Below, piece by piece: positions 1 through 38,088 of a stretch of DNA of 38,088 nt; position 1 is the first letter of the stretch, and every line of letters starts with the position of its first letter. Location: assembly GCA_024220525.1 (NCBI GenBank), contig JAMYWO010000343.1, positions 1 through 38,088 of the forward strand, read 5' to 3'. Made by a program: the position numbers and the translations under genes. Below the pieces are notes generated by a model, which saw only the letters and a program-made list of their open reading frames with translations, was not told where the DNA came from and made no database searches. The DNA is from Cochliopodium minus (taxonomy: Eukaryota > Discosea > Himatismenida > Cochliopodiidae).

Positions 1-110
1 TTTTTTATTTTTTATTTTATTTTTATTTTTATTTTTATTTTTATTTTTATTTTTATTTTTATTTTTATTTTTATTTTTTATTTCTTATTTTTTATTTTTT
101 ATTTTTTTTT
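1..110. repeat. (ATTTTT)n microsatellite in MFS intron
   Basis: Tandem A+T5/T6 units, two of period 7 followed by many of period 6, lie just upstream of the acceptor at 168-169. It matches the microsatellite at the other end of the window (38010-38088). Confidence 0.9.
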
Positions 111-603
111 CAACTGTTTTGTTTATTTATCAAATTTCCATCCAAATTAATAATTTTTTTTTACTCCAGGAATTATTGCAGCAAGTTTTATTTTCAGCCC
201 AATAATAGGGATATTGACGGAGAAAAAGGGATTTGTTTTCACATTTGTGTTCATCCAGATTCTTTCACTCTTTTATCACATTTTGCTTTTTTTCAAGGTT
301 GCCCGCCTACAAATTCTCACCTATTGCATCTACAGTGTTTATAGAGGATTTTTTTACAGTACAGTGATGAATTGGTTGCTGAGTTCTTTTGGTTTCCGTA
401 ATTTTGGAAAACTGTGGGGGGTTACTTTGGTCTTTTCTGGTTTGTTTTGCACCATTCAATATTTAATTTTGTTCTTAAATCTTAACTATTTCGATTCTTT
501 TTTGCTAATTGACATCATCCAGACTTCTTCCTGTGTTCTTTTGTTCTTTTTTCCCATTTATATCCATTTTTCGAAAAACAAAAGATTTGAAAAAAATTTT
601 TGA
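1..603 (+). CDS. MFS transporter (SLC43/FMP42-like), 3'-terminal exon only
   Basis: The coding exon runs from 170 (after the acceptor ctccag) to the stop at 601-603; bases 1-169 are the end of an intron. The exon encodes about 144 aa with roughly five hydrophobic segments, starting IIAASFIFSPIIGIL. This looks like TM8-TM12 of a 12-TM major facilitator, including the short charged loop TEKKG that MFS proteins carry between helices 8 and 9. The exon needs one base from the previous exon (phase 1). The truncated gene at 36198-38088 ends in exactly that phase after TM7, and its last intron starts with the same T-rich microsatellite, so the two pieces read as one gene (see findings). Substrate is unknown; SLC43 relatives move neutral amino acids. 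The family call is firmer from the other half. Confidence 0.75.
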
Positions 604-706
604 TGTATAAATATTTAAAAAACCTTATTCCTTGATTACTTTCAATCTTTGAATATATTTTTTTCAAATTTTTTTAAATTATTCAAAAAAAAAAAAAAAA
701 AAAAAA

Positions 707-2364
707 ATGCAAAAAATAATTCCTTATCTTTGTTTCTTTTTTTTATTTTTCACTCTCTGCTTTTCTTGGGGTCACCTTGGTCATTCAGCAATTGCTGAAG
801 TAGCATATTCCTTGCTTAATGAAGATGCAAAGCTTGTAAAATTAATCTAATTAAATAAAATATTCTTTGAATAATCTAAATATACCATCTGATCATAAAT
901 TATAATGCTTTACTTTGATCAACATTATAATTATATTTTTTTGAAATTTTTCTTTTGAATATTCTTTTTTGACTCCGAGTTTTTGAAATAATATCAAAAT
1001 ATTTTCTTTAAAATTCATTTCTTACAGGCTGTACAAAACTACATCAGGTAAAAAAAAAAAAAAACTACAACTAATAATTTTAAATGCGTGAAAGTCCATT
1101 TTCTCTGGCTGGTGTTGCACCCCAAGTAATCCTTTTAATTTAATTTTAATTTTTGATATAAATTTAATTTAATAAATTAATAATAATCAAAATAATTTTT
1201 TCAAAATTTTTTTCTTGAAAAAAGCCAGATGAATATGCATTCACAACAAAGGGAGGATGGAGTGAACCATTACACTTTTTAAATTTGGCAAGAAACGCAA
1301 CAGGCTACACCAATGCTTCTTGTCCTGATCCTCCTTCTTGTGTTGTCAGAGCCATTCTCAACTACACCAATATTTTGATAAAGTAAGTTAAGTACTTTTA
1401 AATATTTTTACTTTTTTATTATTTTTTATAATTATTTTTATTTTTTAAATTATTTTTATATTTTAAATTATTATTTTTATTTTTATTATTAATTCACTAT
1501 TTCTAAAAAGGGAGGGAAGAAATGGGCCATTTTGCATTTCAGAGTACTCACCATACGTTTATGAGCCTTGTTCTCTCATTTTTCTCACTCACTTTGTCGG
1601 AGATATCCATCAACCTCTCCAGTAACTTTTTAAAAAATTAATATTTAAATTAATATTTAAATTAATATTTAAATTAATATTTAAATTAATATTTAAATTA
1701 ATATTTAAATTAATATTTAAATAAAATTAAAAGCTGTGGATATGGAGATGATGAAGGAGGAAACCTCGTCCCAATATACTATTACTCTCTCAAAACTGGT
1801 TTTTATTTCATTTTTTATTTTATTTATTTTAAATTTTCGTTTTTATATTTTTTTCTTGTAAAAAGAATTACATCAAATATGGGATACAAACATGATTGAA
1901 AATTACACAATGAGTAATTTGGACATCAACAAATTGGCAGAGGGAATAAAAAGAACAATGCTTCTTTTCCCAGACATGGTACATTACTACTACAACAACA
2001 TGAATGTTATTTCATGGGCAAATGAATCCTTTGATTATGTGAGAAACACTTGTTATGTTTTCACTCCCAATGATGCTGAAATGAAGAAAAACTCTTTCAA
2101 CTCTTCTCCTTTCAAAAATAGCTTTCAAATTAATCCTCTTTCTGGTAAAGATAAAAATGTTATTCCTCAACTTGGTATTCTTCTCCTTTTTTTTTCTTTT
2201 TTTTCTTTTTAATCTTGGAATTAAAAGGAACCTGGTATCTTGAAAAGAATCTCCCTATCATTTTTCAAAGACTCACTGCTGCTTCAATCAGACTTGCTCA
2301 TCTTTTGAATGATGTTTTTGGTACAAATCCTGTTTCAGTTTTATCAAAATTGGATCCAAAATAA
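707..2364 (+). CDS. Secreted S1/P1-type zinc nuclease
   Basis: Eight exons join in frame: 707-835, 1028-1047, 1095-1125, 1225-1382, 1511-1621, 1734-1798, 1866-2174 and 2228-2364, giving 319 aa, normal for the family. A hydrophobic signal peptide (residues 1-20) is followed by SWGHLGH; in S1/P1 nucleases the mature N-terminal Trp and the nearby His are zinc ligands. Further zinc-site motifs are EPLHFLN, HFVGDIHQPLH (spliced across 1621/1734, which creates the last His) and LHQIWD, then the C-terminal RLAHLLN helix. All three zinc sites look filled, so an active single-strand DNA/RNA 3'-nucleotidase-type enzyme is expected, acting outside the cell or in a lysosome/food vacuole. An A-run of about 23 bases precedes the ATG. 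The gene converges on the RNA-ligase gene, with only 53 bp between stops. Confidence 0.9.
1638..1721. repeat. 12-bp minisatellite, 7 copies
   Basis: The unit TTAATATTTAAA is repeated seven times without error. It fills the intron between exons 5 and 6 of the nuclease gene. The unit is partly palindromic. Confidence 0.9.
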
Positions 2365-2417
2365 ATATTTAAAATTTGGAAATAATATAAATTATTTAAT
2401 TAATTTTTTGATCGATT

Positions 2418-4516
2418 TTATTTGTTGATAAGTTCCAAAAATAATTTTTTGGCACTTTCCTTCAAGATTGGTTCTATTTCAGAAAATTCAAGTTCATTTT
2501 TTTTAATCTCTAAGGAAGTTTCTCTTTTGATATCTTCACATATCCACTGCAAAAATGGCTGAATCTTTTCAATAGTAATTTTACCATTACAAACCTCTTC
2601 TATTGCTTGTTCTATTCTGGATGGTGTTAATGTTAATTCTACAAATTGTTCCGCACTTTCTATTTTTTGGGGAGAAAGCTGCATCATATCTTGATTTATT
2701 ATTTTATGGGTTGGTCCCTTAACCTTGAAAACCCTTTTTTTATTTATTAAAATTAGTATTTCTTTTAAAAAAAAAGAAAAGTACATTTCACTAAAATCTG
2801 AAACATTAATCAAACTTTCCTTGAAAACAGGATAAAAAACTAATAAAAAATTATTAATTTTATTCAACAATAAAAAAAAAAATACCTAATCCTTCTCCAA
2901 CTCCTTTAACCCCAAATTCTTTTTCTACCCAAGGATCTAAAATTAAAAAGATATTTAATGTGGAAAAAAAAACAGAATATAATAAATATAAAAAAAGAAA
3001 TATTATAATAATCAAATAATAATCAAATAATAATCAATTAGAATGATAATTATTTAATTTATAGTAATAAAATTGGGTTGTGTACCATTTTGGTCAATTT
3101 GTAAAACGAGTTGATTGACAGAGAGAGCGAGGGGAGAAAGAGAAGAAGGATCATGAAAGGGGAAAAGAAAAGAAGGGGATTGCCAGGGGAGGAGATGGAG
3201 ATTGGAGGGGAGGGGGAGAGGGAAAAAAGAGGAGAGAAGGAGAGGATCAACGACCATTTTATCATCAATTTGTAAAGCAAAAACAGCAAAAATATTTTTG
3301 TTTATTTCACTTATTGCCGCTCTTTTCATTATTCCCTTCCCGCAAAATTCTCCAAACACTGTCACACTTTCTTTTGCTTTCGCTATTCCCCATATCCCCT
3401 TAAAGTACTCTTCGTTTTCTTTCACAAATTTCCCATAAAACCCTTTTTTAAAAAAAATTTGTTCACAAAAATCAAAAAATTAATTAAAATATTCAATAAT
3501 AGTATAAAAAAATATTAAAAAAAAAAAAATATTAAATAATAAATCATAAATAAATCATAAATAAATAATAAAATAATTAATATTAAGGAGAATAAAAGAA
3601 GAAGAGGAGGTGAAGAACCATAGTTAGATTTTTTATCAGTAAGAAATTTGTTTCTGGATTGTGCATATACTTCTTTTCCTCCTTTTTGAATAGTTATCCC
3701 TGCGTTTGTTCCATGTAACTTTATCTTCCCTCTTTTTATTTAATAAAAATATTACTATCTATTTCTTATAAAACTAATTTTTTTTTGAACATTGTCCAAT
3801 TTATTCTAATATTTTTATAAAAATTATTTCTTTTTTCTTTATAACAATTTATTTCCCATTGAATTTTTAAATTAATAATAAAATTAATAATAATAATATT
3901 TTTTATTAATAATAAAATAAAATTAATTTTTTTTACCTATATTCGATTGGCTCTTTTAATTCTCTTTTGAGAATGGATTCTCTCACATGATAAAACATGT
4001 AAATTTTAGGGAAGGGAATGAATTTTCCAATTGGTTTTTTTGTTTTTTTCTTTACTTCAACTTTTTTTGAAAAAATAACATCAAATAACATCAAATAACA
4101 TCAAATAACATTAAATAACATCAAATAACATCCAATAACATCAAATAACATCCAATAACATCCAATAAGAATTAATTTATATTGATATTAAAGAACCATC
4201 TCAAAATAATTTTGATTAAATAAATTTACCCTTAAGATCAGGATATAAATCTTTGCAATTCTCAACCAACCATGGAATGCATTTTCTGAATGTTTTTTTA
4301 TTTTCGATACAAAATTCAGCTGGAAATTTGCATACTTTGTTATAAAATGAAATAGGTTATATTTAATTAAATACGTTAATATTTTGTAAATTATTTTCTT
4401 TTACCTTGACAATAAATCACTTTGATTGGTTCAATTTTGATTTTGTTATCATTAATTTCAATCCCTTCAACATCCTCATCCTCTTCTTCGATTTCCTTAA
4501 CAAAATCTTTTTCCAT
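2418..4516 (-). CDS. DENR-type zinc domain fused to an RNA ligase
   Basis: Seven exons join in phase: 4516-4405, 4334-4230, 4060-3937, 3731-3619, 3442-3086, 2936-2886 and 2761-2418 (401 aa). Residues about 28-72 match the N-terminal zinc domain of DENR/TMA22: YCQVC, FPAEFC, then a Cys before IPWLVEN, with Cys 36, 39, 46 and 56. From about residue 85 it is a nucleotidyltransferase RNA ligase. Motif I is KLHGTNAG (predicted AMP-accepting Lys118). It is followed by FGEFCGKG, a DPWVEK segment, GVGEGL (motif IV) and FKVKG (motif V), then a helical C-terminus. The layout resembles the Deinococcus DRB0094-like ligase family, which seals RNA breaks. The SUI1 domain of true DENR is absent. The domains are clear; the fusion rests on the phase-1 join 4230/4060 across a 169-nt intron and could be two genes. 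In the ligase part there is no convincing separate start before Met in FPKIYM. Confidence 0.8.
3121..3246 (+). other. Purine-rich, G-run tract inside the ligase exon
   Basis: About 126 bases are almost all G and A on the + strand, with several GGGG runs, in otherwise AT-rich DNA. On the coding (-) strand it encodes a Pro/Leu/Ser-rich segment. Near-copies of CCATTTT..TCAATTTGTAAA lie on both sides (about 3085-3108 and 3254-3275). Confidence 0.7.
4075..4170. repeat. 10-bp minisatellite (TCAAATAACA), about 9 copies
   Basis: Tandem TCAAATAACA units with a few C/T and A/C changes fill the intron between the DENR-like and ligase parts of the fused gene. Confidence 0.9.
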
Positions 4517-4698
4517 TTTTTTTTTTTTTCGAAAAAAGAGAAAAATTTGGGTAAATAAAAAAAACAAAAAGTTTGGAATGAAAATGTTTGAAACAAATAG
4601 CTCTTAATGAATTACAAGAAAATTATGAGAAAATACCAGATAAGAAGTTTTTAAAATAAACAAAATTTTTAATATTTTTAATTAAATTAAAGAAATTA

Positions 4699-7170
4699 TC
4701 AATTATCATCATCCAATTGAATATCATCTAATTTATTTTCTTGTAAAAAGATTATTTCATTGTTTTCCAAAGATTTTAGTGAATTCTTTTCTGTATTATT
4801 AGAACTATTTTTTAAATCTTCTCCATTACTGCTACCTTTAAGATCTTTACCATTATTATTATTACTAGCTTTAGTATTATTACTATTACTGCTACCTTTA
4901 AGATCTTTAGTATTATTATTATGATTACTAGCTTTAAGATCTTTAGTATTGTTACTTTGACTTTTACCATTACTGTCATCTTTTGAAGTGATACAACTAT
5001 AATTCGTGTTTGTGTTGTTATTAGATTCTATAATCGTGTCAGTTTTATTATTATCGCTAATTGTAGTTGTATTATTGTTATTATCATTATTATTATTTGT
5101 ATTATTATTATTATTATTATCATTATTATTATTTGTATTATTATTATTATTATTATCATTATTATTATTTGTATTAGTATTATTATTGTTATCACTTCTA
5201 TTATTATTATCATTATTTGTAGTTCCATTATTATTATTATTATTATTTGTATTTGTAGTAATATTATTATGATGAGAAGAAGTGAGGGGGAGGAAAGGGA
5301 GGAGGGGATCCCAGGGAGGATGAGTACCAGTAAAACCACGATAAAGAGGAACATTGAGAAGAAGAAAGGGATGAGAAAGAAGCTGAAGAGCAGAAGAACG
5401 GTGTTTGGGATCCATTTTAACACAATTTTCAAAGAAATCTTTAATTTCTTCACTGCATTTCGTACTTTTTTCCAAGTAAATTCCCTCTGTTTTAATTTTC
5501 TCCATAATTTCTTGTTTTTGTAAACCCCAGTACGGTGGATCTTTTTGTAACATTTCCAATGTCACTACTCCTATTGCCCATATGTCCACTCCTTCCCCGT
5601 ATCCCTCTTTTCTAATACTTTCTGGTGCCAACCAATTGTATGTCCTTTTTTTAAATAAATAAAGTTAAAAATTAAAATAATAATAATTAAAATAATAAAA
5701 ATTAAAAAAATAAAAATAAAAATAATAATAATTAAAATAATAATTAAAATAATAAAAATTAAAATAATAAAAAAAAGATTTTGAATAAAAAGAAGTACCC
5801 CACAACTTGACTTTGATAATGAACATCTCTAATGGAAGTAGCAAAACCAAAATCTGCCAATTTAATTGAACCATCCGCCCCATACAAAATATTGTCACTC
5901 TTTATATCCCTTTTTTTTTTTCGAAATAAATCAAAATTAAAATAATTTAAATATTAAAAATAAAGAGAAATAAATAATAAAATAAAAAGAAATAAATATT
6001 AAAATAAAGAGAAATAAATATTAAAATAAATAATAAAATAAATATTAAAATAAATAATAAAATAAATATTAAAATAAATAATAAAATAAATATTAAAATA
6101 AATATTAAAATAAATAATAAAATAAATAATAAAATAAATAATAAAATAAATATTAAAATAAATATTAAAATAAATAATAAAATAAATATTAAAATAAAGA
6201 GAAATAAATATAGAAATTAAAAATAAAGAGAAATAAATATTAAAAACATATAAAAGGAAATAACCTATGAATTTTTCCGAAATGATGCAAATAAGCAATG
6301 GCACGGAGAGTTTCTTGGAGTACAAAAGCCATTTCAGGTTCAGGTATTCTATCTTCTTTCAATATTCTTTGAAATAAGTTTCCTCCTGGCAAATACTCCA
6401 ATATCATCTTTTTTATCGTTAAAGGAATAACATTTAAAATAAAAAATAAATTAATAATAAATTTAAAATAGAGAAATAAAGGAATAACATTTAAAATAAA
6501 AAAATAAATTAATAATAAATTTAAAATAGAGAAATAAAGAAATAATATTTAAAATAAAAAAATAAATTAATAATAGATTTAAAATAGAGAAATAAAGAAA
6601 CAATATTTAAAATAAAAATCTAAACATATCAGTATCAATTTAAAAAAAATGTTAAAAAAAATTGTTTTAAAAATTATTAATTTAAAAAAAAAGAAAAAAC
6701 CCAAAGTTGCTGTTTTTGAATGACCCAAAAAGCTTCATAAAAGGAAACAATGTTGGGATGTTTGATAGTTTTATGATTGACAATTTCATCAACAACATAT
6801 GAAAAATTTAAATTTGTTATAAACACTATTTTCACTGCTACTCTTTCTTTTGTTTTTTTGTTCATTGCTGTGTATATTGTCGAGAACCCCCTTTAAATTA
6901 AGTAACAAAATTGAAAATTCATCTTTGATATCTTTAATATCTTTAATATTTGAATATATTATCTTTTATTATCTTTAATTTTTAATATCTTCAATATCTT
7001 TATTATCTTGAATATATTATCTTTTATTATCTTTAATTATCTTTAATTTTTAATATATCTTTTATTATGGTTATTATCTTATTATTCGATTTGGTTTGGT
7101 TCAAAAAAAATTACCCCTTATCAATTTCCATTTTGTTTATGAATATTTCTTCCGGATCACCTGTTGACAT
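4699..7170 (-). CDS. STE20/PAK-like Ser/Thr protein kinase with Asn-rich tail
   Basis: Five exons: 7170-7115, 6890-6701, 6407-6265, 5909-5799 and 5644-4699, all phases consistent (481 aa). The kinase domain begins almost at the N-terminus: glycine loop [14 protein letters not shown] (Lys39), alpha-C Glu about 54, [29 protein letters not shown] (Asp131), ADFGFA (Asp149), [15 protein letters not shown] and [23 protein letters not shown] and the PGGNL hinge are typical of the PAK/STE20 group. All catalytic residues are present, so it should be active. The tail (about residues 270-481) is a long N/T tract followed by four near-repeats of KDLKxSSN. There is no visible CRIB or PH domain, so its activator is unknown. 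Introns are packed with A/T repeats; one donor is GTTTTT. It lies 80 bp downstream of the C2 gene. Confidence 0.9.
5940..6235. repeat. AAATAATA/AAATATTA repeat array
   Basis: A dense array of AAATAATAAAAT and AAATATTAAAAT units fills the intron at 6264-5910 of the kinase gene. On the transcribed sense strand it is T-rich. Confidence 0.85.
6421..6620. repeat. 57-58 bp tandem repeat, about 3.4 copies
   Basis: Units start at about 6421, 6478, 6536 and 6594 with AAAG(G/A)AATAA and end with TTTAAAATAGAGAAAT. They lie in the kinase intron 6700-6408, and the last copy is partial. Confidence 0.85.
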
Positions 7171-7250
7171 TATGTTTGCATACTATGTAATAAAATTGTA
7201 ATTAAATTTAAAAATCAAAAATGGATAAAATATTTATTTTTATAAAGTCT

Positions 7251-8303
7251 TCAAAAGATTTTTTTTTCTCTTACATCAATATCTTTATGCTCTTCTATGA
7301 CAAACTTTCTTTTGACATTATTCTTTGATCTATTAAAAAAACAGACTTTGACAAGAAGTTGGCCGGTGATATAATCGTCTATTTCATTTTCTTTGGGTGA
7401 TAATTTAAACCATTTGTTTATTTCCTCCTCCCCCATTATCTCCAAAAACACTTGTCCATGAAATTGTCCTTTTGATGACCAAACCTCTATCAATAATTTT
7501 GTTGGTAATTCTGTTGTCCTACAAAAAGCAATAAATTAGAATGTTTGATTATCTTAAATTATCAGGCAAACAATATAAAGATATTTAAAAGAGATAATTA
7601 ATTTTGACAAATAATAATAATAATTAATAAAAGAGAGCATTTTTAGGTTGTAATCTCATAAAAATAATTTCAATTCTTACAATAACCAATGAGATTTGAA
7701 TTGAGGACTAAAACTAGAATCTGATTTTTCTGATTTTGCTTCCAATTTATTTTTTTTGGAATTTATATTGGATGGATTCAAGAATATTTTGACATATGAT
7801 GGATTGCTATTACCTAAAACAAAAAATGTTTTGAAAAATATGAAAAATATTTTTTTTTAAGTGATATATTCGCCTTTGATATTAATTTTGTGAAATACAA
7901 TTAAAAGTTTTAGAACCAAATGGATTGAATATCAATTGAAAGGAAAATTAAATATAAATTTTCATTTACCAGTGGGTGTTGATAATTTCCTTGCGGAAAC
8001 AATTTCAAGAAGCCAAGTTTCTTCATGTTTAAAGATGAAGTTTCTTGGCGTCTTTCCTGTTTTTTCTACCATTCCCCAATCGCTAACAGTCCTTGGTGTT
8101 ATACCAGGGAAACCATTGGTATTTGTTTTATTCTTTGTTGGTTTTTGTTGATTATTGTTATTATTATTGGCTTTTTCATTTTCATGAGATGAATCAATAT
8201 CTGAATTACTTTTGTCAGAATTTGTAGATTTATGGATGATGGGTAATGAATTCCTATAATCATCCTTTTTAGATTTTGGCTTATTTATATTATATTGGCT
8301 CAT
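7251..8303 (-). CDS. C2-domain protein, Asn-rich N-terminus
   Basis: Three exons: 8303-7970, 7813-7681 and 7518-7251 (244 aa). Residues 1-90 are polar and N-rich. The rest reads as a C2 beta-sandwich: WLLEIVSARKLSTPTG, NPSYVKIFLN, SPQFKSHWLL, LLIEVWSSKGQFHGQVFLEI and GQLLVKVCFF. C2 domains bind membranes or partners, often with Ca2+; here the acidic Ca2+-binding loops look poor, so Ca2+-independent binding is more likely (inference). A good donor-like GTAAGA sits just before the stop at 7251, so a further exon cannot be excluded, but only 80 bp remain before the kinase start. The exact family is unknown. Confidence 0.75.
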
Positions 8304-8387
8304 GGAGAAATATATCTAAGTATCAAAGACAATATTTTTTTTTTTTATAATTCTTTTAATTTTATAAAAAGGTTTGTTGGATTGATC

Positions 8388-8960
8388 TCATTTTGCATAC
8401 AATTTGGTCCATTCTGTTGCTGTTTTTTTTGCTTGAACAAGATTCTTTTTCCATTGTTCAGCAACATCATTTGCAAGAGGATCATCAGGATTTGGTTCTG
8501 AAAGTAAGGATTGAATGGATAATAAAACTTTTTCGACTTGTAATGCTGCAGACCAATTTTCTGGTTTTAAAATACTCAAACAAATTCTTCCCAATTTATC
8601 TAAAATTATTTATAAATATATATTATGAGTTTAAAATTAAAAGATACTTACCAATATTTGGATGGTAAATTTTGGTCAAAAAGCGAACTTTTGGAGCTTC
8701 CATTGGATAGTTTTCAGATAAAAAAAGTTCCAATTTGAAAATTCCCAATTCATATGGAGAATCTTTTGGTCCTTTCATTGTGATATCAAAATATCTCATA
8801 TTTTCTTCTTTTGGGATTGCTGTTATTCCCTCAGCTTGAATAATTAAGAGTAATGAAATTAATATATATTTGTTAATATTAATTTTGGTAATATTAATTA
8901 TATACGTGGATTTTTTTGAAGTTTTGAAGTTTCTCTTAATATTCTAGTTTTATAATCCAT
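8388..8960 (-). CDS. Ubiquitin-conjugating enzyme E2, Ubc13/UBE2N-like
   Basis: Three exons: 8960-8906, 8834-8652 and 8599-8388 (149 aa, against about 152 for Ubc13). The E2 fold is complete: [35 protein letters not shown], the active-site stretch GRICLSILK with Cys86, then [20 protein letters not shown], diagnostic of Ubc13/UBE2N. Ubc13 pairs with a Uev protein to build K63-linked ubiquitin chains for DNA-damage tolerance and signalling. Compared with the usual ILKDKW, it reads ILKPENW, one residue longer beside the active site. A RING/TRAF-type protein at 19400 is a plausible but untested partner. It lies 84 bp upstream of the C2 gene on the same strand. Confidence 0.95.
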
Positions 8961-9074
8961 TGAATCAGACCAATTTTTTTTTTTTTTATTTTTGAATATC
9001 AATATCACAAATTCGATTGTAAATAAATTTTAATTCTCATTTAATCAGAGAAAGAAGATATCTCTCTTCTTTGT

Positions 9075-11025
9075 TTAATTTTGTTGTTTTTGTTGATTTT
9101 CGTAATCGGTTTGAAGTTGACCCCATTTGATTCTGTTATTGGAGAGAATTTCAACAATTTCACTGGTGGAAGGGAGAGAGTTGGAGACATTCTTGAAAAA
9201 AGGGCTTGCAACAAAATCAATAAAGTTACAAGTATTTTTAAACATGGAGCTCTTCTCTCTATCCATGAAAGGAGCAACATCAATATTTTTGGATTTTTCT
9301 AAATCACCTTGATTAAAAAACTCTTTGGTGAGATATTCGGTCCATTTGTAGGAACAATTCCAAATTTTGGCAACATTGGAAATATCAGAGACTTTCATGA
9401 TCAATTGACACAAAAGAATTCTATCATCCTTATCTTCTCTGTTCCATTGTTTTCCACTTTGAGTTCTTGATTCAATTTTAGAAACAAATTCAAAATGAGC
9501 GGCCATATCGGTAGCCAAAATGCAAGCAATAATAATTTTTCTTAATTCTAAGAATTCTGTTTTGGGAGTTTTTCCAAGGATAGAGTTATCAAGCAATAAT
9601 TTGAAAGTGATGTAGCAATGATGATTCTCCAAAACAGATTTATCGTTGTATTTGATAGCAAGCTCACTGTGGGTGGCGACTTGATGGGGATTGTTCAAAC
9701 CAGGATGTTGTAAATCATGGCAAAGGCCAGAAATGAGGAGTCCAAAGATATCTAAGTGTGTCAAATACTGGCCAAGATTCATCGAAATTAACATCGAAAA
9801 GATGGTTTGGGTGACATCAAAAGCATGAACAAAATTATGGTAGGGATTATCGAAATAATTTTTTTTGACCAAAAGGAGGAATTTTTCGAAATTTTTTTCG
9901 TCGATTTGAAAGCGATTGAGGAGATCAAAGTGTACAAAAAATTGTTTTAATTGTACGAGCATCTCTTGTTCAGAAAGTTCAAAAAGATCAAATGTCCACT
10001 TTTCCACTTTTGGATTGGTGATAGATTGATTGGGAAGAAGAGGAAAGGTGAGGTTAATGTTCAAATCTTCTTTCAAATTTAAATTTTTTCCACTAATTTC
10101 TGAAACAATGTAAGATTTGGTAACTGAGTCTAATTTATCGTTTGATATAATGTTTTCAAAGGTTGGTTTGTACAGATTTTGATTGCTCACAAACATTAAG
10201 AGTTGTTTCAATTTGGATTGAACATTTGGCATTGTTTTGCAGCTTTCTTCTTCCATCAATGAAGAGATCATCTTTGTTAATTCTTGTATTGGTGTTTTTA
10301 ATTCTTCCAATGCACTGCTTGATAGATTCTTCACTTCAATCAAATGTTTTTTAAGATTCCCTATTTCTTCTTCTTTCTCTTCCAGTTCTTTGGTTTTTAA
10401 TATTATATTCTTGTTTTGTTTTTCCATCAATTCTTTTCTATATTTTCATGAGAGAATTGGATTTTATGTTTATTATTGAATATGAAAAAATTTTATAAAA
10501 TTTAATATTTTTAAAAAGAGGGTATTAAAATTTGAATCAAAATTGAGGTATATTTAGTTTTGGAAATTAATTTACGCTTGATAATTTTCTATAATTGTCT
10601 GCACTTTTTTTAAAAGAACGGATCTGATGAGAGGTTTGAAAAGATAGTCATGGCTTCCTTTTTCAATAGCTTGTTTGGCTGAATTTTTATTGGTTTCTTC
10701 AGCAGTCATAAAGATCACTGGCAAATTTTTTGTTCTTTTGTCATTAATCATTTTTTCAACCAATGCAAATCCTCCCATTTTAGGCATATGAACATCACTT
10801 ATCATAAGGCTTATTTCTTCGCATCTTGAGTTTAAAATTTCCCATGCCTTTTCACCATTTTCAGCAGTAATTACTAAAATATTCGATATTTTATTATTAT
10901 TTTTTTTGTACTTCATTTAAATTTAATTTACCTTCGTAATTTGATTTCATCAACCATTTTGTCAATGATTGTCTCAATAATGGTTCATCATCAACCACAA
11001 GAATCAAACTTTTTTTATTCTCCAT
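9075..11025 (-). CDS. regA: RegA-type response regulator - cyclic nucleotide phosphodiesterase
   Basis: Three exons: 11025-10932, 10873-10576 and 10437-9075; both junctions keep frame (584 aa). The N-terminal receiver domain has VVDDEP (Asp12/13), phospho-acceptor Asp58 in SDVHMPKMGG, Thr in FMTAEE and Lys in YLFKPL, all intact. A short coiled coil (KELEEKEEEIGNLKKHL) links it to a class I HD-type phosphodiesterase: YHNFVHAFDVTQ, GLCHDLQHPGLNN, ILATDMAAHFEFV and CQLIMKVSDISNVAK, so the metal-binding His/Asp set is complete. Dictyostelium RegA has this architecture; phosphorelay through RdeA to the receiver controls cAMP breakdown and thereby PKA and encystation/sporulation. The same role is inferred here. 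The introns matter: read without splicing, the receiver and the enzyme look like two separate genes. Confidence 0.93.
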
Positions 11026-11266
11026 TTTTTTATTTAATTATTTTTTTATTTGGTATTTATTGATTAATATTCCTATTTTGAACTTGATCAATCTAAAAAA
11101 AAATGGATTTAATACTGAATAATATTCTGTTTGGGAATGGTTGTGACGAAATCAAGATGGAAAACTAGTCTATAAACTCTTCTCAAAAATTTCAAGAAAT
11201 ATCAAAATGTTGAATAACAAAATTATAAATTCTTGAAATTAAAACAATTCACAATATTATAAATAT
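11026..11266. other. Intergenic upstream of regA-like gene
   Basis: 241 bp of AT-rich DNA between the RegA-like start codon and the LINE remnant. I see no gene or clear promoter motif. Confidence 0.5.
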
Positions 11267-11600
11267 TCAAACCATTCGAGTATTAATACTTTCAAGGACT
11301 TTCTCAAGATAGAGGTGGTTTACACGATCAAATGCTTTTGAACAGTCGAGAAACATTGCATGTGGGTCGGTTCCGCTTTCCTTTGCTCTTTCAACAAGTA
11401 AATTCACAGCGTGCACATTATCATGGATGAGCCTTCCAGGATGACAAAACTGATTTTCACTTATCAAATTGTTTTTCAAGACATTGTTTGATTCTTTGAG
11501 TCTTTGCTTTGGTGATTATTTTCCTGGATATTTCGAGAAGTGTAATTGGTCTAAGGTCGTTCACATCATTGCTATCTTCTTTCTTTGGGATGAGAGTGAT
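11267..11600 (-). mobile_element. Degenerate non-LTR (LINE) reverse transcriptase fragment
   Basis: Two overlapping frames on the - strand carry RT-domain motifs. The first has LIPKKEDSN, then NDLRPITLLEISRKI (the RPI-L block). The second has NQFCHPGRLIHDN and FLDCSKAFDRVNH (RT motif A with a catalytic Asp). The frame changes by one base in an A-rich run around 11465-11478, and a stop follows soon after motif A, so this is a dead fragment of perhaps 110 codons out of a full element. Its 5' side stops exactly at the ambiguous base 11601. No endonuclease, poly-A tail or target-site duplication is visible. Being repetitive, it is also the kind of sequence at which assemblies break. Confidence 0.85.
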
Positions 11601-11601
11601 N
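11601..11601. other. Single ambiguous base (n), probable assembly junction
   Basis: This is the only n in the window. It sits exactly between the LINE fragment and an (AAAAAT)n microsatellite, both classic contig-end sequences. See findings. Confidence 0.7.
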
Positions 11602-11735
11602 AATAAAAATAAAAATAAAAATAAAAATAAAAATAAAAATAAAAATAAAAATAAAAATAAAAATAAAAATAAATAAATAAAAATAAAAATAAAAATAAAA
11701 TAAAAAATAAAAAATAATCAAATTTAAAAAATAAA
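11602..11735. repeat. (AAAAAT)n microsatellite
   Basis: More than ten perfect AAAAAT units and then variants. It lies in the last visible UVRAG intron and abuts the n. Confidence 0.95.
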
Positions 11736-11757
11736 AATAAAAACAAAAAATGTTTAC

Positions 11758-13821
11758 CTAAATGGTCTTTGTACTTTTCGTTGAGACTCATCAAGTTTTT
11801 AAAACTGTCCAGGTTGTAAGTGGCCAGTCTTTGAATTTTGCTCATTTGAGAATTTTTGGTGGGAGGAGCAATCGAATTCACGTTAAACTTTCTTTCGATC
11901 TTGAAAAATAATGAGGTTTTAAAAATAAAATAAAAATGTAAAAGTGAAAATGAAAAAAAAAAAATGAATTAATTAAAAAAAAAAATAAAAATGAATAAAT
12001 AATAAATAATAAAAAATAAAAAATAAAAAATAAAAATGAAAAAATAATTAAAAATAAAAAATAGATGAAAATTAAAGAAAAAGTGAAATAAAAATACAAA
12101 ATAAAAAATAAAAAATGAATAATAATTAAAAATAAAAAATAGAAAATGAAAAATAAAAAAAATAAAAGAAATTAAAAAAATAATAAATAATAAAGATGAA
12201 CGAAAAATAAGAAATAAAGCAACAAATAAAAAATAAAAATAAGAAAATAAAATAATAAAATAAATAAAATTAATAAATATTAAATGATAAGCTTTAAAAA
12301 TGAAAAATAAAAAATAAAAATGAAAAAATAATTAAAAATAAAAAATAAATGAAAACTAAAGAAAAAGTGAAATAAAAGAAATTAAACAATAAAAAAAAAA
12401 TAGAAAAATAAAAAATAAAAAAAAATAAAATAATAAAATAAATAAATAAGTTTTACCAAAAAATCAATGAGTTCAGGCATGACGTAATAACCGTCGGAAA
12501 GTTTGAAGACGAGACTTCTACGAGGGATTTTTTCACGCATAAAAATCAAGTCACCGATGTACTCCAACCAACAGAGATTTACTCTCTTCTCCACCACAAG
12601 CGAACAAGAATAATTTTTGTTGAGGTGACAGTTTATTATGTCTCCCACCTCCACTTTCTAAATTTTATTAAATATAAAAAATAAGAAATTCTACGTAGAT
12701 AACTAGATAATTTTTATATAATAATTAATCTTTTTAAAGAATTCATTTGTCAAAATCAAATAAACATAAAAATAAAATGTAAAAAAAAAAAAATACAAAT
12801 ACAAATACAAATAAATAAAAGTTGGATCGGAAAAAAAAGAAAAATTTTTAAAAAAAAATGTAAACAAAAATAAAAAAATATTTAAAAATGTTCAACATCA
12901 AAATAAAAATAAAATAAAAAAATATTTAAAATAAAAAATAAAAATAAAAGTAAAAATAAAAAAATAAAAAAATAAATGAAAATGAAAATAAAATGAATAA
13001 AAAATAAAAATAAAAATAAAATAAAAATAAGAATAAAAAGAAAAAGAAAAATAAAAAGAAAAATAAAAAATGAATAAAAAAATAAAGATACCATTTTATG
13101 AAAATAATTGAAAAAAAATATTAAAAATTATTAAAAAAAAATTTTTTGTCAATAAAAATAAATAATTTACAAATTGAGGGAAAGAGGAAGAATTATCGAA
13201 ATGGGTGCCAGATCGACGGAAGGGAGGAGTCTCATAAAGAAGAGCATTGTTCTCCACACTCTCGTTGAATTGATGGATATGGTTGTTGTTGTTCGAGCTA
13301 TTGAAGCTGCTTATGATATTGTCTTTGGTGTCTTCATTGTTATCTTTGTTTTTATTAATTTATTTAATTTTTTAAAAAGAATTTTTAATTTTTTTGTTTT
13401 TTTAAATTTATTTTAAATTTAAATTTTTGAATTAAATTTTGTTTATTTATTTCAATTTTTTTTTTAAAAAATACATTATTCATATATTAAATTTTAATTT
13501 TTTATTTATTTTGTTTTAAAGATTTAATTTTTTTGAATTTAATTTTTTTTCAAAATAAAAATTTTACCTGTAAAAAACCTTTTGTCATCAAAACTGGGTA
13601 TACTTTCGCCAATAATATTATTTTCATTGATAATGTCATTATTATTATTATTGTTAATGTTAATGTTAATGTCATTATAATTTTTTAGACTGTTGTTTAA
13701 TTTGTTATAATTTTTAAAACTGTTATTATTGATATTATTATTATTATTATTATTATTATGATTATTATTATTATTATTATTATCATTATTATCATTATTA
13801 TTATTATTATTGTTACTACTA

Positions 13822-23463: not shown

Positions 23464-26400
23464 TTATTTTTTTTCGTTTAGCAATGAGAGTATTTTCTGT
23501 TCTTTTTCGAAAAGCAAGTTCTTGTATTTTTCTTCCATAAGATCCAGTTTTTGTTGATGATCTTGTTTGATGTGGAAGACTTGTTGCTGATAATGACAAA
23601 ACTGAGAAAGATGGTAAAACTGGAGGGAGGGGAGTGAAAGGAGATCTGAACAAGGAGAAGAAAGGGGAGGGTTAATGAAAGGAGAGTTATCTAAAGTGGA
23701 AACATCAAAAGAAAAGTTGAGTTTTTTGGAAATGGAAAGAAAAGATTGGATGAGGGAGGAGATGGAAGGCCTTTTTTCCACTTCTAAACTTGTCATTTCA
23801 TTTAGTAAGAGTTTCACAGAAGGAGGCAAGTAAATAAAATTGTTTTTTTGTACAAATTGAAGGAGGGTTGCTCCCAAAGAAAAGGTGTCAGTGGAGAAGG
23901 TTTCTTGGGGGGTATTCTTTTCTGGCGCTTCGAAAATGGAGAGCATGCTGGGATTAAGTAAAGAAGGAGGTGAAGAAGAAGAAGAAAGGTAAATTAGAGA
24001 AAAGCAAAAAAAAGGATCATTGGTTGTGTTCTTCAAATGATTGATATCATTTTGGTTTTTTTCAACAGTTTTTTGATTATTAAAATAAATTAAAATAGAA
24101 TCAAGGGAAATAGAACGATGGAGAAGATGATGTGAATGAATGTGGGAAAGTTGATGGAGCAGCAGAAGAGTCATTCGAAGAAAACTAGAAAGGGGGTTCG
24201 AAGAGAAGAAGGAAGAAATGAAGAGCTTTTCTTTTTTTATTTTTGATAAAACTTTGCAATTTTCGTTCCATTCAATCACAATGTAGTGATTGAGAAGTGG
24301 ATCGTTTTCTCCGTGAAACAATAATTTGTTGGTGGTTATGTTTTCAAATTTGGAAAAGGATTGAAAGGTGGAGAGATTTTTTTTCCAGAGATTGTGGTCT
24401 GTAAACTTGAGGAGGAGAACAAATTGATTATTTTTCAAATCGAAACATTTGTAGAGGGAAATCAACTCGTCTTTATTTTTAGTTTTGATTATCTTCTTTT
24501 TGATGAAAACCAATCTCCCATCACAAAGCAGCTTGTTCCTTTGGCTTTGAAAGAGGGAAGCACATTGGGTGCAGGTTTTTTTGGTTTGGGTGTTCTCAAC
24601 AACTAGATTCATTCCACATGACCTACATTTCTTTTTTTTGTAGTCCAAGTCAATGTTGTTAAGAGGAGAATTAAAATCGAATTGCAAATTGATTCTATCA
24701 TTTTGATAGAAAGGGTTTGTGAAAGAAGAAATGTTTTTGTCAACACTTTTTTTCTCTTGAATGAAATGAATTTCCCTGAAATGAGGAGAATAATTTTCAA
24801 AGAAGTATTTGATTATATAGAAAAAATGTTCTGCCATATCCTCCACCTTCTCTTTAGTTGGATGTGAAGAGTTGTGAGGGAGAAAAGTTTTAATCGAAAA
24901 AAAGAGAGATGCTTTAAAGTTTTCACTGAAGCTGGAAGAAGGAGCATATGACAAGGGCTTTATGAGAAGATCTATTATTTTTCCGCCTCCTTCTTTTTCT
25001 TTGATGTTCATGTGGCATCCATTTTTCCAATAATATTCATCAATCACCTCTCCTTTACCTTCTTCAATTCCCTCCTTCAAAAATTAAAAATTAAATGTAA
25101 AAAGTTTGATGAAATTAAACAACAAAAATCTTACAAGTCTGATGAGTGAAAAAAGAGTTTTGATGGAAAGAGGACTATAAAAAGGAAGAAAAAAGACAAA
25201 AGAATGATCATAAGTATAGAAATTGTTGAAGTGAGAGTAGTACATCCTTTTTTCATACTCCAAAGCACTGTTGTTTATGTTTCCCATACTATTACTATTA
25301 TTGGAAGAAAAAACAGTGTTTTGATTTAGAAAGGAAGGAGCAGAGTTAGGGAGGGAGTAGCTGATGGAAGAAAGGGAAATTCGAGGAGCAAAATTGAGGG
25401 GTTTATTTGTTACAAACAAAGATGGAAAGAAATAAATTTGAGAATCTAAAATCTCTGTGAGTTTGTTCAAATCATTATCTCTTTTAAAATTATCATCTTT
25501 TTCATTGGTGTAAATTTTGTTGAAGAGATAAGGAGATTTTGGAAAGAGAAGAGAAAGAGAGGAAAAGAAGCGAAGGAAGTAGAGCTTGAAGGAAAGATGT
25601 TTGTATGATTGTTGCTGTTCTTTTACTACGAGAGAAGGAGAGGAAGTTATGAGAGAAGTGAAAGAAGAATAATTGGAAGGAGAAGTCAAAATGGAGGTGG
25701 AAGAAGACAAAGTGGGGTTAGAAAAATTCAAGTTGCCATTTTTATTACTATTTCCATTGTTATTTAAAAGAAAGAATGAGTCCAATAAAAAACTTAGAGA
25801 AGAAAAATCGAATTGGTAAAGAAGAGAAGAGTGAAGAAAGTTGTTTTGAAAAATGATAGATTCTTCGTGCAACTGGATCTTTATGTTCTCATATTGAGTC
25901 AGCAGAACGTGATAGGGCGTCTTCTCCACCAATGAAAGTTTTCTTTGCTCCTTGAGCTCCCAGATCTCCTGGATGGTGTAGGTCGGTTTCGCTTTGTGTT
26001 TTAAAAATTTTAAAAAGTTTTCGAGTTTTATTTTGCAATTTTCGTTTTTTTTAGAATGAATGTACTTTCCTTTTTTTTCCAAATCAGACAAATACAAAAA
26101 ACATTTCTGTAAATTATTTTCTATTTTTTTTTTGCCCAAATTCAATAGGAGCTTGAAAAGTTTGTTGAGCCAGTTCACATCATAAACGATCATCCCCTCC
26201 TTCTCGAAATAAGACATGTGCACATTATTTTCGATGACTTCCTTGGTTAACCTTTGCAAGTTGACGTTCATGGTGTCCCACTCTTCTTTCTTTTCTTTTT
26301 TCTCTTTTTCAACATTTTCTTTGATGATAGGGTTCTTCTGTTTCTGGGAATAGGAGAAGATGTGCTTCCTCAGCTTGGAGATGTCCAGAACGTACTTCCT

Positions 26401-36197: not shown

Positions 36198-38088
36198 ATG
36201 ACATTTTTGAATAGAATAAGAATAACCCCAAATAGGACATGGAAGAAAATATTGATTTTCACTATTGCGACAATTTCGGTGCTTTTTACCAGTGGAATAA
36301 TATTTGGATGGCCTGCATTGCTTTTGGTTTTCAAAAAGGAACAAGTTTTTCATTATCTATGCCCTAAAGATACAGATCCAAATGATTTGGTAAATCCTTT
36401 TCCATTATTCGATTTGTTATTGAATATACCTATTGTCACTTGGCATGTTAGTGTGATGATCAATATCTTCGATTGACTTTAGTTTATTTGATTGGGGTAA
36501 TTGCATCTATTGCCAGTTCATTACCCATAGGAATAGGATTGGATAAAATAGGAGCGAGAATAATGGGATTGTTTGGATGTGTATTATTATGTTCTGGAAG
36601 CATGTTGATTAGTTATTGGGAATTATATGGTCTCACCAGTTTGCTGATTGGTTTTTTATTTCTGAGCACTGGTGGAAATTCATTGTTTTTATCAATCATC
36701 ACTCTCACAGATATTTTCAAAGAGAACATGTCAATAGCTGTTGGGATACTCAATTGTAAAATTTCAATATTAAATTTTATGTGCTTAAATTTTTTCAATT
36801 CGTTTTTATTTCAATTTTAAATAAAGGTGCATATGATGCCAGTACCATTGTTTTCTTCATTTTTCTTATTTTAAATAAACAATATGACTACAAATCATCT
36901 GATCTCTTCTTTTCCTTTTCTTTTTTCCCTCTGGGATTGATTGTTTTGCTTCTGTTTTGGCCATCGAAAGAAGAAATCTCCATGATAAGCTTCTCCAGTG
37001 AAAATTCAAACTATATCAAAAATGAAAGGTGAAAAAAAATAATTATTGAAGAAAAAGAAAAAGATTATTCATTTTATTTTAATAAAATAAAAAAAATAAT
37101 ATTCAAAGGAAAAAGATTAAAAAGATTAATATTTATATATTAGTTATAAAAGTGCAACGAATGTTTGGAATGCAATAAGAAGCCAGATTATGATTTCAGA
37201 TCGACATTATGATGAAATCAATCAAGATGTAGATGTCAAGATGGATGACGAAGAAGAAGAGGACAGCAGCGAAGAATTCAATCATCAACTCGATAGAAGG
37301 GATTTCTCTCAGGGTTCTTCATCGAACAGAATGTTTAATGATGAAGATGAAATCAGTGACGAGTATTCAACCAATCATAAAAATAAGAAAGATTCAATTC
37401 CTCACATTAAAAAAAAAAAAAAAGAGATAATGAATAATAAGAATAATAATAATAATGTTAAAAAAAATAATGAAAATAATGAAAATGATAAAAATAATGG
37501 GAATAGTAATGATGAAAATTTTGAGGATAGGATCGTAATTATAGAACACAAAGAAGGAGAAATCGTTTTTGATGAAAAATCTTCTCTTCTTTCAAAAAAT
37601 AAAAATAATTATAACAATTATTATTATAATGATAATAAAAATAACAATAATAATAAAAATAAAAATGATAATAACAAAATTGATAATAATAAAAATAAAA
37701 ATGGTAAAATGAATAAAAATGATAATATTGACAACAAAAACATTTTTGATAGTAAAAATGAAAAAAAAAATGAAAAAAACAAAATTAAAAATGAAAAAAG
37801 TGATTCAATGAAAAGAATAGAGAAAGGGAGGATACCATATTTATCTACTTTACCTTTTGCAGAACAAATGAGGAGTAAGGAGTACATCATGTTTTTGATT
37901 TACACTCTCTTCAGTCTTTTGTGGCTCACCATGTTTTTGGCTACTGTGGACCGAAGGCTTTACTACACGGATGAAAATACTCGAAATGAATTGGTTGAAA
38001 TGTTCACTGGTATCTTTTTATTTTTTATTTTTTATTTTTTATTTTTTATTTTTTATTTTTTATTTTTTATTTTTTATTTTTTATTTTT
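36198..38088 (+). CDS. MFS transporter (SLC43/FMP42-like), first four exons
   Basis: Exons 36198-36389, 36452-36755, 36827-37028 and 37144-38009; an intron then runs off the window (GGTATC donor at 38010). TM1 and its loop read ILIFTIATISVLF, IIFGWPALLLVFKKEQVF, HYLCP; after splicing, CDDQYLRLTLVYLIG matches the conserved C-x-x-Q...L start of TM2 in SLC43/FMP42 proteins. The MFS signature loop is GIGLDKIGARIMG. About six TM helices, a very long acidic and Asn/Lys-rich cytosolic loop (about residues 235-490) and TM7 (YIMFLIYTLFSLLWLTMFL) follow. SLC43 proteins carry large neutral amino acids; substrate here is unknown. TM8-12 are missing here but are exactly what the exon at 170-603 supplies, in the right phase. 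Confidence 0.88.
38010..38088. repeat. (ATTTTTT)n microsatellite at window end
   Basis: Period-7 A+T6 units begin right after the intron donor and run to the last base; the first bases of the window continue the same pattern for two units. Confidence 0.95.

What the first reader, a model, noticed from the sequence alone, without database searches (positions are those of the whole stretch)
36198..38088. The two ends of the window are two halves of one gene
The transporter at the right end stops after TM7 in phase 1 (..TTC ACT G|GTATC). The exon at 170-603 begins in phase 1 (..CCAG|GA ATT ATT) and supplies TM8-TM12 and the stop. Joined, the exons total 1998 nt, an exact frame of 665 codons plus stop, and the shared intron would be about 248 nt of one T-rich microsatellite. 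Chance or two unrelated paralogs cut at the same intron is unlikely. Options: (a) scaffold pieces in the wrong order, the true order being 11602-38088 then 1-11600; (b) a circular molecule of about 38 kb; (c) one unit of a large tandem array. The gene set is ordinary nuclear housekeeping, with no replication gene, and the n at 11601 favours (a).
Basis: partly seen in the sequence, partly recalled or inferred. Interest (0 to 1): 0.88.

Follow-up and report, generated by a model that had tools for sequence, protein, structure and literature searches.

The report
One gene split by misordered scaffold
The two ends of this 38-kb piece of an amoeba genome are, very probably, the two halves of one ordinary transporter gene, because the assembly put neighbouring fragments in the wrong order; two other pieces of the same genome appear to show the same fault, so it is an assembly error and not new biology.

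Summary
Four exons at the right end (36198-38009) and one at the left end (170-603) make one 1998-nt frame, 665 codons plus stop, of an SLC43-type transporter. None of five readable paralogues has the phase-1 intron at the join, and each half has one full match in the genome. The window is a whole scaffold, almost certainly of the published Cochliopodium minus draft: its longest scaffold has exactly the length of contig C1. That draft was scaffolded with SSPACE and artificial mate pairs. The n at 11601 joins a LINE cut in mid-element to an intron of a 3'-truncated gene. In C400, RUVBL2 is split between the outer ends while the only n cuts a formin. In C179, a formin FH2 is split between an N run and the contig end. 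It is an assembly artefact, probably recurrent; wrong mate-pair orientation is my inferred cause. Circles or arrays are not excluded but unnecessary.

The parts
36198..36389 (+). transporter exon 1 (start codon, TM1 region; ends phase 0)
   Evidence: lies in the N-half stretch that matches 9l38_A
36452..36755 (+). transporter exon 2 (ends phase 1)
   Evidence: MFS_1 on the exon's ORF, E=3e-4, below the Pfam cut-off; only one full match in the genome
36827..37028 (+). transporter exon 3 (ends phase 2)
   Evidence: gene model
37144..38009 (+). transporter exon 4: Asn/Lys-rich loop and TM7; ends phase 1 at GT donor 38010
   Evidence: its end has one match in the genome
38010..38088 (+). 5' part of the broken intron, (TTTTTAT)n microsatellite to the contig end
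1..169 (+). 3' part of the same intron, (TTTTTA)n microsatellite, T-rich tract and CAG acceptor
170..603 (+). transporter exon 5 (TM8-TM12, stop)
11601..11601 (.). single n: join between piece A (1-11600) and piece B (11602-38088)
   Evidence: scaffolding method in PMC9198077 section 20
11270..11600 (-). LINE-like reverse-transcriptase fragment cut at the n; copies elsewhere continue past this point
   Evidence: 19 other matches in the genome; copies stay alike for about 600 bases more
11602..11749 (.). (AATAAA)n microsatellite at the left end of piece B, in an intron of the minus-strand gene
11758..11899 (-). last visible exon of an unidentified minus-strand gene; donor GTAAAC follows, later exons not seen
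   Evidence: by eye; no Pfam match
12457..12657 (-). preceding exon of the same truncated gene
   Evidence: no second match in the genome

Best explanation
The contig is a two-piece scaffold written in the wrong order. Piece A (1-11600) and piece B (11602-38088) are real neighbours, but the true order is B then A, with the transporter's microsatellite intron between them. That intron stopped the contigs. The scaffolder knew the two pieces were close and in the same orientation but wrote A-n-B. The outer ends are therefore the true junction, and the n is a false or incomplete one. The same reversal is seen in two other scaffolds, so it is probably recurrent. My inferred cause, not shown, is that the artificial mate pairs were given to SSPACE with the wrong orientation, which would swap order while keeping strand. 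The gene itself is an ordinary SLC43-type membrane transporter.
For: Shown: exact joined frame. Both halves match one solved SLC43 protein in order. The join intron is absent from five readable paralogues: C11 at 96 kb, C493, C98 and C329 have none there, C2 has one about 8 nt further on in another phase. Each half has one full match in the genome. The LINE at the n is cut in mid-element. C400, read in full, has exactly one n; RUVBL2 5' exons leave its left end and the next exon enters from its right end, matching residues 294-359 and 362-428 of the solved chain 5oaf_B, with two junction codons between; no other good match to either half was found. C400's n follows a formin FH3 region, and none of 50 listed FH2 matches lies on C400. 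In C179, FH2 positions 3-94 stop just before a 119-N run and 95-371 begin 3 bases from the right contig end in the matching phase. Published method: SPAdes contigs plus SSPACE with artificial mate pairs of 200-50,000 bp. Longest published scaffold 649,451 bp equals C1.
Against: No read or transcript across the join could be examined; the protein database gave none. I know of no n shown to be a correct join, but I did not survey n positions inside intact genes. The 119-N run in C179 could be a withheld stretch and not a gap, and I did not read between 47.5 and 81.1 kb there. Matching microsatellites at both ends prove nothing alone: of 8 contigs with such ends among 35 read at both ends, 5 have the same strand, and the ends of C465 and C470 did not look like halves of one gene. 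Breaks also occur at microsatellites without any n (C79, C84), so scaffolding is not the only weakness of this assembly. The genome searches are capped and partly masked, and RUVBL1, which should exist, did not appear. The wrong-orientation cause is inference; the supplementary command file could not be read.
Confidence: 0.88

Rival explanations
1. The contig is a real circular molecule of about 38 kb, for example extrachromosomal circular DNA enriched by whole-genome amplification, opened inside the transporter intron by the assembler; the n would be the circle's own junction.
For: The ends fit; wrap-around units of about 38, 31 and 35 kb exist; DNA of nuclei and single cells was amplified with REPLI-g, whose enzyme favours circles (recalled).
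Against: The flanks of the n or N run in C339, C400 and C179 are mostly places where assemblies break for ordinary reasons: LINE, microsatellite, T-rich intron; a circle's breakpoint has no reason to sit there. C339's ends share only 12 exact bases. The genes recognised look like ordinary nuclear ones. The similar sizes partly reflect which contigs I sampled.
Confidence: 0.05
2. One unit of a tandem array: many 38-kb copies head to tail, collapsed into one contig.
For: Would give the same wrap-around; tandem copies of this transporter family exist on C11.
Against: The C11 copies lie within about 15 kb, and the one readable there lacks this intron. The gene cut at 11758 and the LINE are not completed across the n, which an array would need unless the unit boundary falls at the n.
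Confidence: 0.02
3. Two different paralogues happen to be cut at the same intron at the two contig ends.
For: The family has members on at least six other contigs: C11, C493, C98, C329, C2, C20.
Against: None of the five readable paralogues has this intron; only one full match exists for each half; frame and spacing fit. RUVBL2 in C400, with no second copy found, shows the same thing.
Confidence: 0.03

Closest known systems
Scaffold order (relocation) misassembly in mate-pair scaffolding
   Same: Pieces in right orientation but wrong order, joined by n or a short N run at repeats; genes broken at the joins
   Different: Here the swapped pieces are true neighbours in three of three scaffolds where a partner half was found, so the error looks recurrent and not like random false links
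SLC43 family (ENBT1/SLC43A3, LAT4/SLC43A2) MFS transporters
   Same: Both halves match 9l38_A in order; the C half also matches 9jbs_A; Pfam MFS_1 46.5 bits on the joined protein. Gene numbers SLC43A3 and SLC43A2 are recalled.
   Different: Long Asn/Lys-rich stretch in the central loop; substrate unknown
Extrachromosomal circular DNA
   Same: Contig ends belong together
   Different: Only 12 exact bases of end overlap in C339, and breakpoints sit at assembly-break repeats

Membership tests
Scaffold order misassembly | A scaffold gap mark separates the pieces | tested here: met
   n at 11601; 14 distinct single-N sites in 60 loci; C400 has one n; SSPACE method. The 119-N run in C179 may be a gap or a withheld stretch
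Scaffold order misassembly | A gene followed up to the gap does not continue across it | tested here: met
   4 of 4 followed: C339:11601, C400:26022, C179:46827, C11:108181, where the rest of the gene is absent from the next 6.2 kb. These were met because genes broke there; not a random sample
Scaffold order misassembly | Outer or later ends rejoin the broken gene exactly | tested here: met
   3 genes: C339, C400, C179
Scaffold order misassembly | Reads support B-A and not A-B | not testable with these tools
   no reads available
Circular extrachromosomal DNA | Ends of the assembled contig overlap | tested here: inconclusive
   C339: 12 exact bases, no overlap of 95% identity or more; C400: 45 exact bases, all microsatellite
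Circular extrachromosomal DNA | Covalently closed molecule, raised copy number | not testable with these tools
   no read depth or long reads
SLC43 transporter family | Sequence match to both halves of a family member in order | tested here: met
   26-195 to 18-194 (47.7 bits) and 550-654 to 372-477 (17.0 bits) of 9l38_A
SLC43 transporter family | Transport of nucleobases or neutral amino acids | not testable with these tools
   needs an assay

The most novel reading that the evidence does not exclude
Cochliopodium carries many circular DNA molecules of about 30-40 kb that hold ordinary nuclear genes, perhaps linked to its nuclear fusion and fission (PMC9198077 abstract; PMC11606643 passages); C339, C400 and the end of C179 would be three of them, enriched by rolling-circle amplification.
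Probability: 0.04. Interest if true: 0.75.

Novelty: not a real feature. Interest (0 to 1): 0.2.

Why it matters
It warns users of the C. minus draft that piece order within scaffolds, and genes near gaps, may be wrong. The paper considers transferred bacterial genes only where they lie on scaffolds dominated by amoeba and eukaryote genes, so the joins matter to such claims, though neighbours in swapped order are still neighbours. The same artificial-mate-pair tools were used for another genome, Beroe ovata (PMC11184263, passages), so the cause deserves a check; nothing here shows an error in that genome.

Tried and rejected
Matching microsatellites at both contig ends as a general sign of swapped pieces: rejected as a statistic (5 of 8 on the same strand, among 35 contigs read at both ends: 22 of 28, six having a withheld left end, and 13).

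Finding the missing 3' exons of the gene cut at 11758: I guessed an RGS domain and searched PF00615 (50 matches) but saw no match placed as an orphan at a contig end; contig lengths were known for only some of them. C494, first suspected, turned out to be 20 kb long. The preceding exon has no other match in the genome, and Pfam gives nothing. The gene stays unidentified.

Transcript support: two protein searches with the joined transporter found one distant relative and nothing. FolD from the same window has a 100% match to a EukProt transcript protein, so a transcriptome of this or a very near organism is held, but this gene is not seen in it.

More swapped genes by long conserved domains: myosin (76 matches) and kinesin (49 matches), read by position only, showed no further wrap-around; three myosin heads are incomplete (C84, C79, C496). 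C598 (one n, same microsatellite at both ends) could not be resolved at gene level. The rest of the C11 gene cut at 108181 was not found by a search for its next segment.

I thought the exon right of C400's n MOSC-like (recalled); Pfam did not confirm it. The meaning of a single n in SSPACE output (negative gap) is recalled; searches for it in print and passages of PMC8110574 and PMC6733440 did not give it.

Full report
What is there. The window is a whole contig, C339, of a 44.65-Mb genome in 598 contigs. At its right end four exons (36198-36389, 36452-36755, 36827-37028, 37144-38009) encode the first part of a membrane transporter and stop in phase 1 at a GT donor, followed by a (TTTTTAT)n microsatellite to the last base. 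At its left end a (TTTTTA)n microsatellite leads to an AG acceptor and an exon, 170-603, in phase 1. Joined, the exons are 1998 nt, 665 codons and a stop.

Is it one gene? Very probably. In the Protein Data Bank the joined protein's best match is the nucleobase transporter ENBT1 (9l38_A): the right-end part matches residues 18-194 and, weakly, the left-end part residues 372-477. Pfam MFS_1 rises from 20 bits on the exon-2 frame alone to 46.5 bits on the joined protein. The genome holds several relatives at 25-40% identity, with tandem copies on C11. If the two ends were two paralogues they should share the intron at the cut. Of five paralogues readable there, C11 (96 kb), C493, C98 and C329 have no intron at that place and C2 has one about 8 nt downstream in another phase. 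The C20 and C11 (109 kb) copies could not be read there. Across the join the alignment has no gap opposite C493, C11 and C329 and one gap column opposite C98 and P0001. Each half has one full match in the genome; these searches score only the best candidates and do not see withheld stretches.

What is at the n. Left of 11601 a LINE-like fragment stops at the n. Nineteen other matches exist, and copies remain alike for about 600 bases past that point, so the copy is cut by the assembly. Right of the n a microsatellite sits in an intron of a minus-strand gene whose later exons are not seen; the next minus-strand gene to the left starts afresh with a response regulator and a phosphodiesterase. 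Nothing is shown to continue across the n.

Which genome, and how it was made. The published Cochliopodium minus draft has a longest scaffold of 649,451 bp and 26.33% GC (PMC9198077; I saw the abstract, sections 5 and 20, and passages). C1 here is 649,451 bp and the window is 26.4% GC. The draft was made from SPAdes contigs scaffolded with SSPACE, using artificial mate pairs of 200-50,000 bp made after a Supernova assembly of linked reads, and was split at gaps over 10 kb; part of the DNA was amplified. In the 60 loci scanned I counted 14 distinct single-base N sites, the window's included, many at LINE or microsatellite edges; loci fetched by LINE matches are over-represented there.

The same thing elsewhere. 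C400 (30,708 bp, fully read) has exactly one n, at 26022. On its minus strand RUVBL2 exons run off the left end after LLIITTN, and the next exon, YSPEEIAKIIQIRC..., enters from the right end; both ends carry the same 9-mer microsatellite. The halves match residues 294-359 and 362-428 of the same solved chain (5oaf_B), leaving two residues for the junction codons. No other good match to either half was found in the genome (one chance-level match at E=0.98). The sequence left of C400's n ends in a formin: FH3 clearly, GBD just under the Pfam cut-off. The sequence right of it is not identified, and none of the 50 listed FH2 matches in the genome lies on C400. C179 (82,096 bp) is the third case: FH2 positions 3-94 end just before a 119-N run, positions 95-371 begin three bases from the contig's right end, and the splice phases fit. 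Formins are many here and the N run may be a withheld stretch, so this case is weaker than RUVBL2. I found C400 by reading contig ends and C179 through the FH2 search.

How it most likely works. In all three scaffolds the right end of the contig fits the left end of an earlier piece. The pieces are thus true neighbours written in swapped order with strand kept; random false links would not do that. Shown: the three rejoined genes and the broken genes at the gaps. Inferred: that a wrong mate-pair orientation setting caused it. Four of four gaps to which I followed a gene are wrong or hide much sequence (C339, C400, C179, C11), but these were met because genes broke there; correct gaps inside intact genes were not sought.

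Rivals. A circle or collapsed array would also make the ends fit, but the flanks of the n are mostly ordinary assembly breakpoints, and C339's exact end overlap is 12 bases. Two paralogues are unlikely for the reasons above. Against my reading: matching microsatellites alone are not informative (5 of 8 on the same strand), C465 and C470 did not behave as swapped by eye, myosin and kinesin surveys gave no new case, and contigs seem to break at microsatellites without an n too (C79, C84).

Verdict. As biology it is ordinary; as a warning about a published assembly it is useful.

Noticed in passing
window 9075-11023, minus strand: A response regulator domain and a cyclic-nucleotide phosphodiesterase domain in neighbouring exons, resembling RegA of Dictyostelium (recalled).
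   Followed up: no
L027 (C11:107026-110196), C11:108181: A single n cuts a transporter paralogue in mid-exon after about TM5; an A-rich microsatellite follows and the rest of the gene is absent from the next 6.2 kb.
   Followed up: partly
L146 (C79:162900-163320) and L145 (C84:94200-94900): Incomplete myosin heads next to unrelated-looking sequence across a microsatellite with no n: possible chimeric contigs made before scaffolding.
   Followed up: partly
L024 (C1), position 2600: An n joins a T-rich microsatellite directly to an A-rich one, which no single repeat would do.
   Followed up: no
C11:95-110 kb: Tandem copies of the SLC43-like transporter, 92-95% alike in the TM1 and TM2-TM3 pieces.
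   Followed up: no
L012 and L056 (C598, 10038 bp): One n at 2378 and the same T-rich 7-mer at both ends; may be a further swapped scaffold, unresolved.
   Followed up: partly
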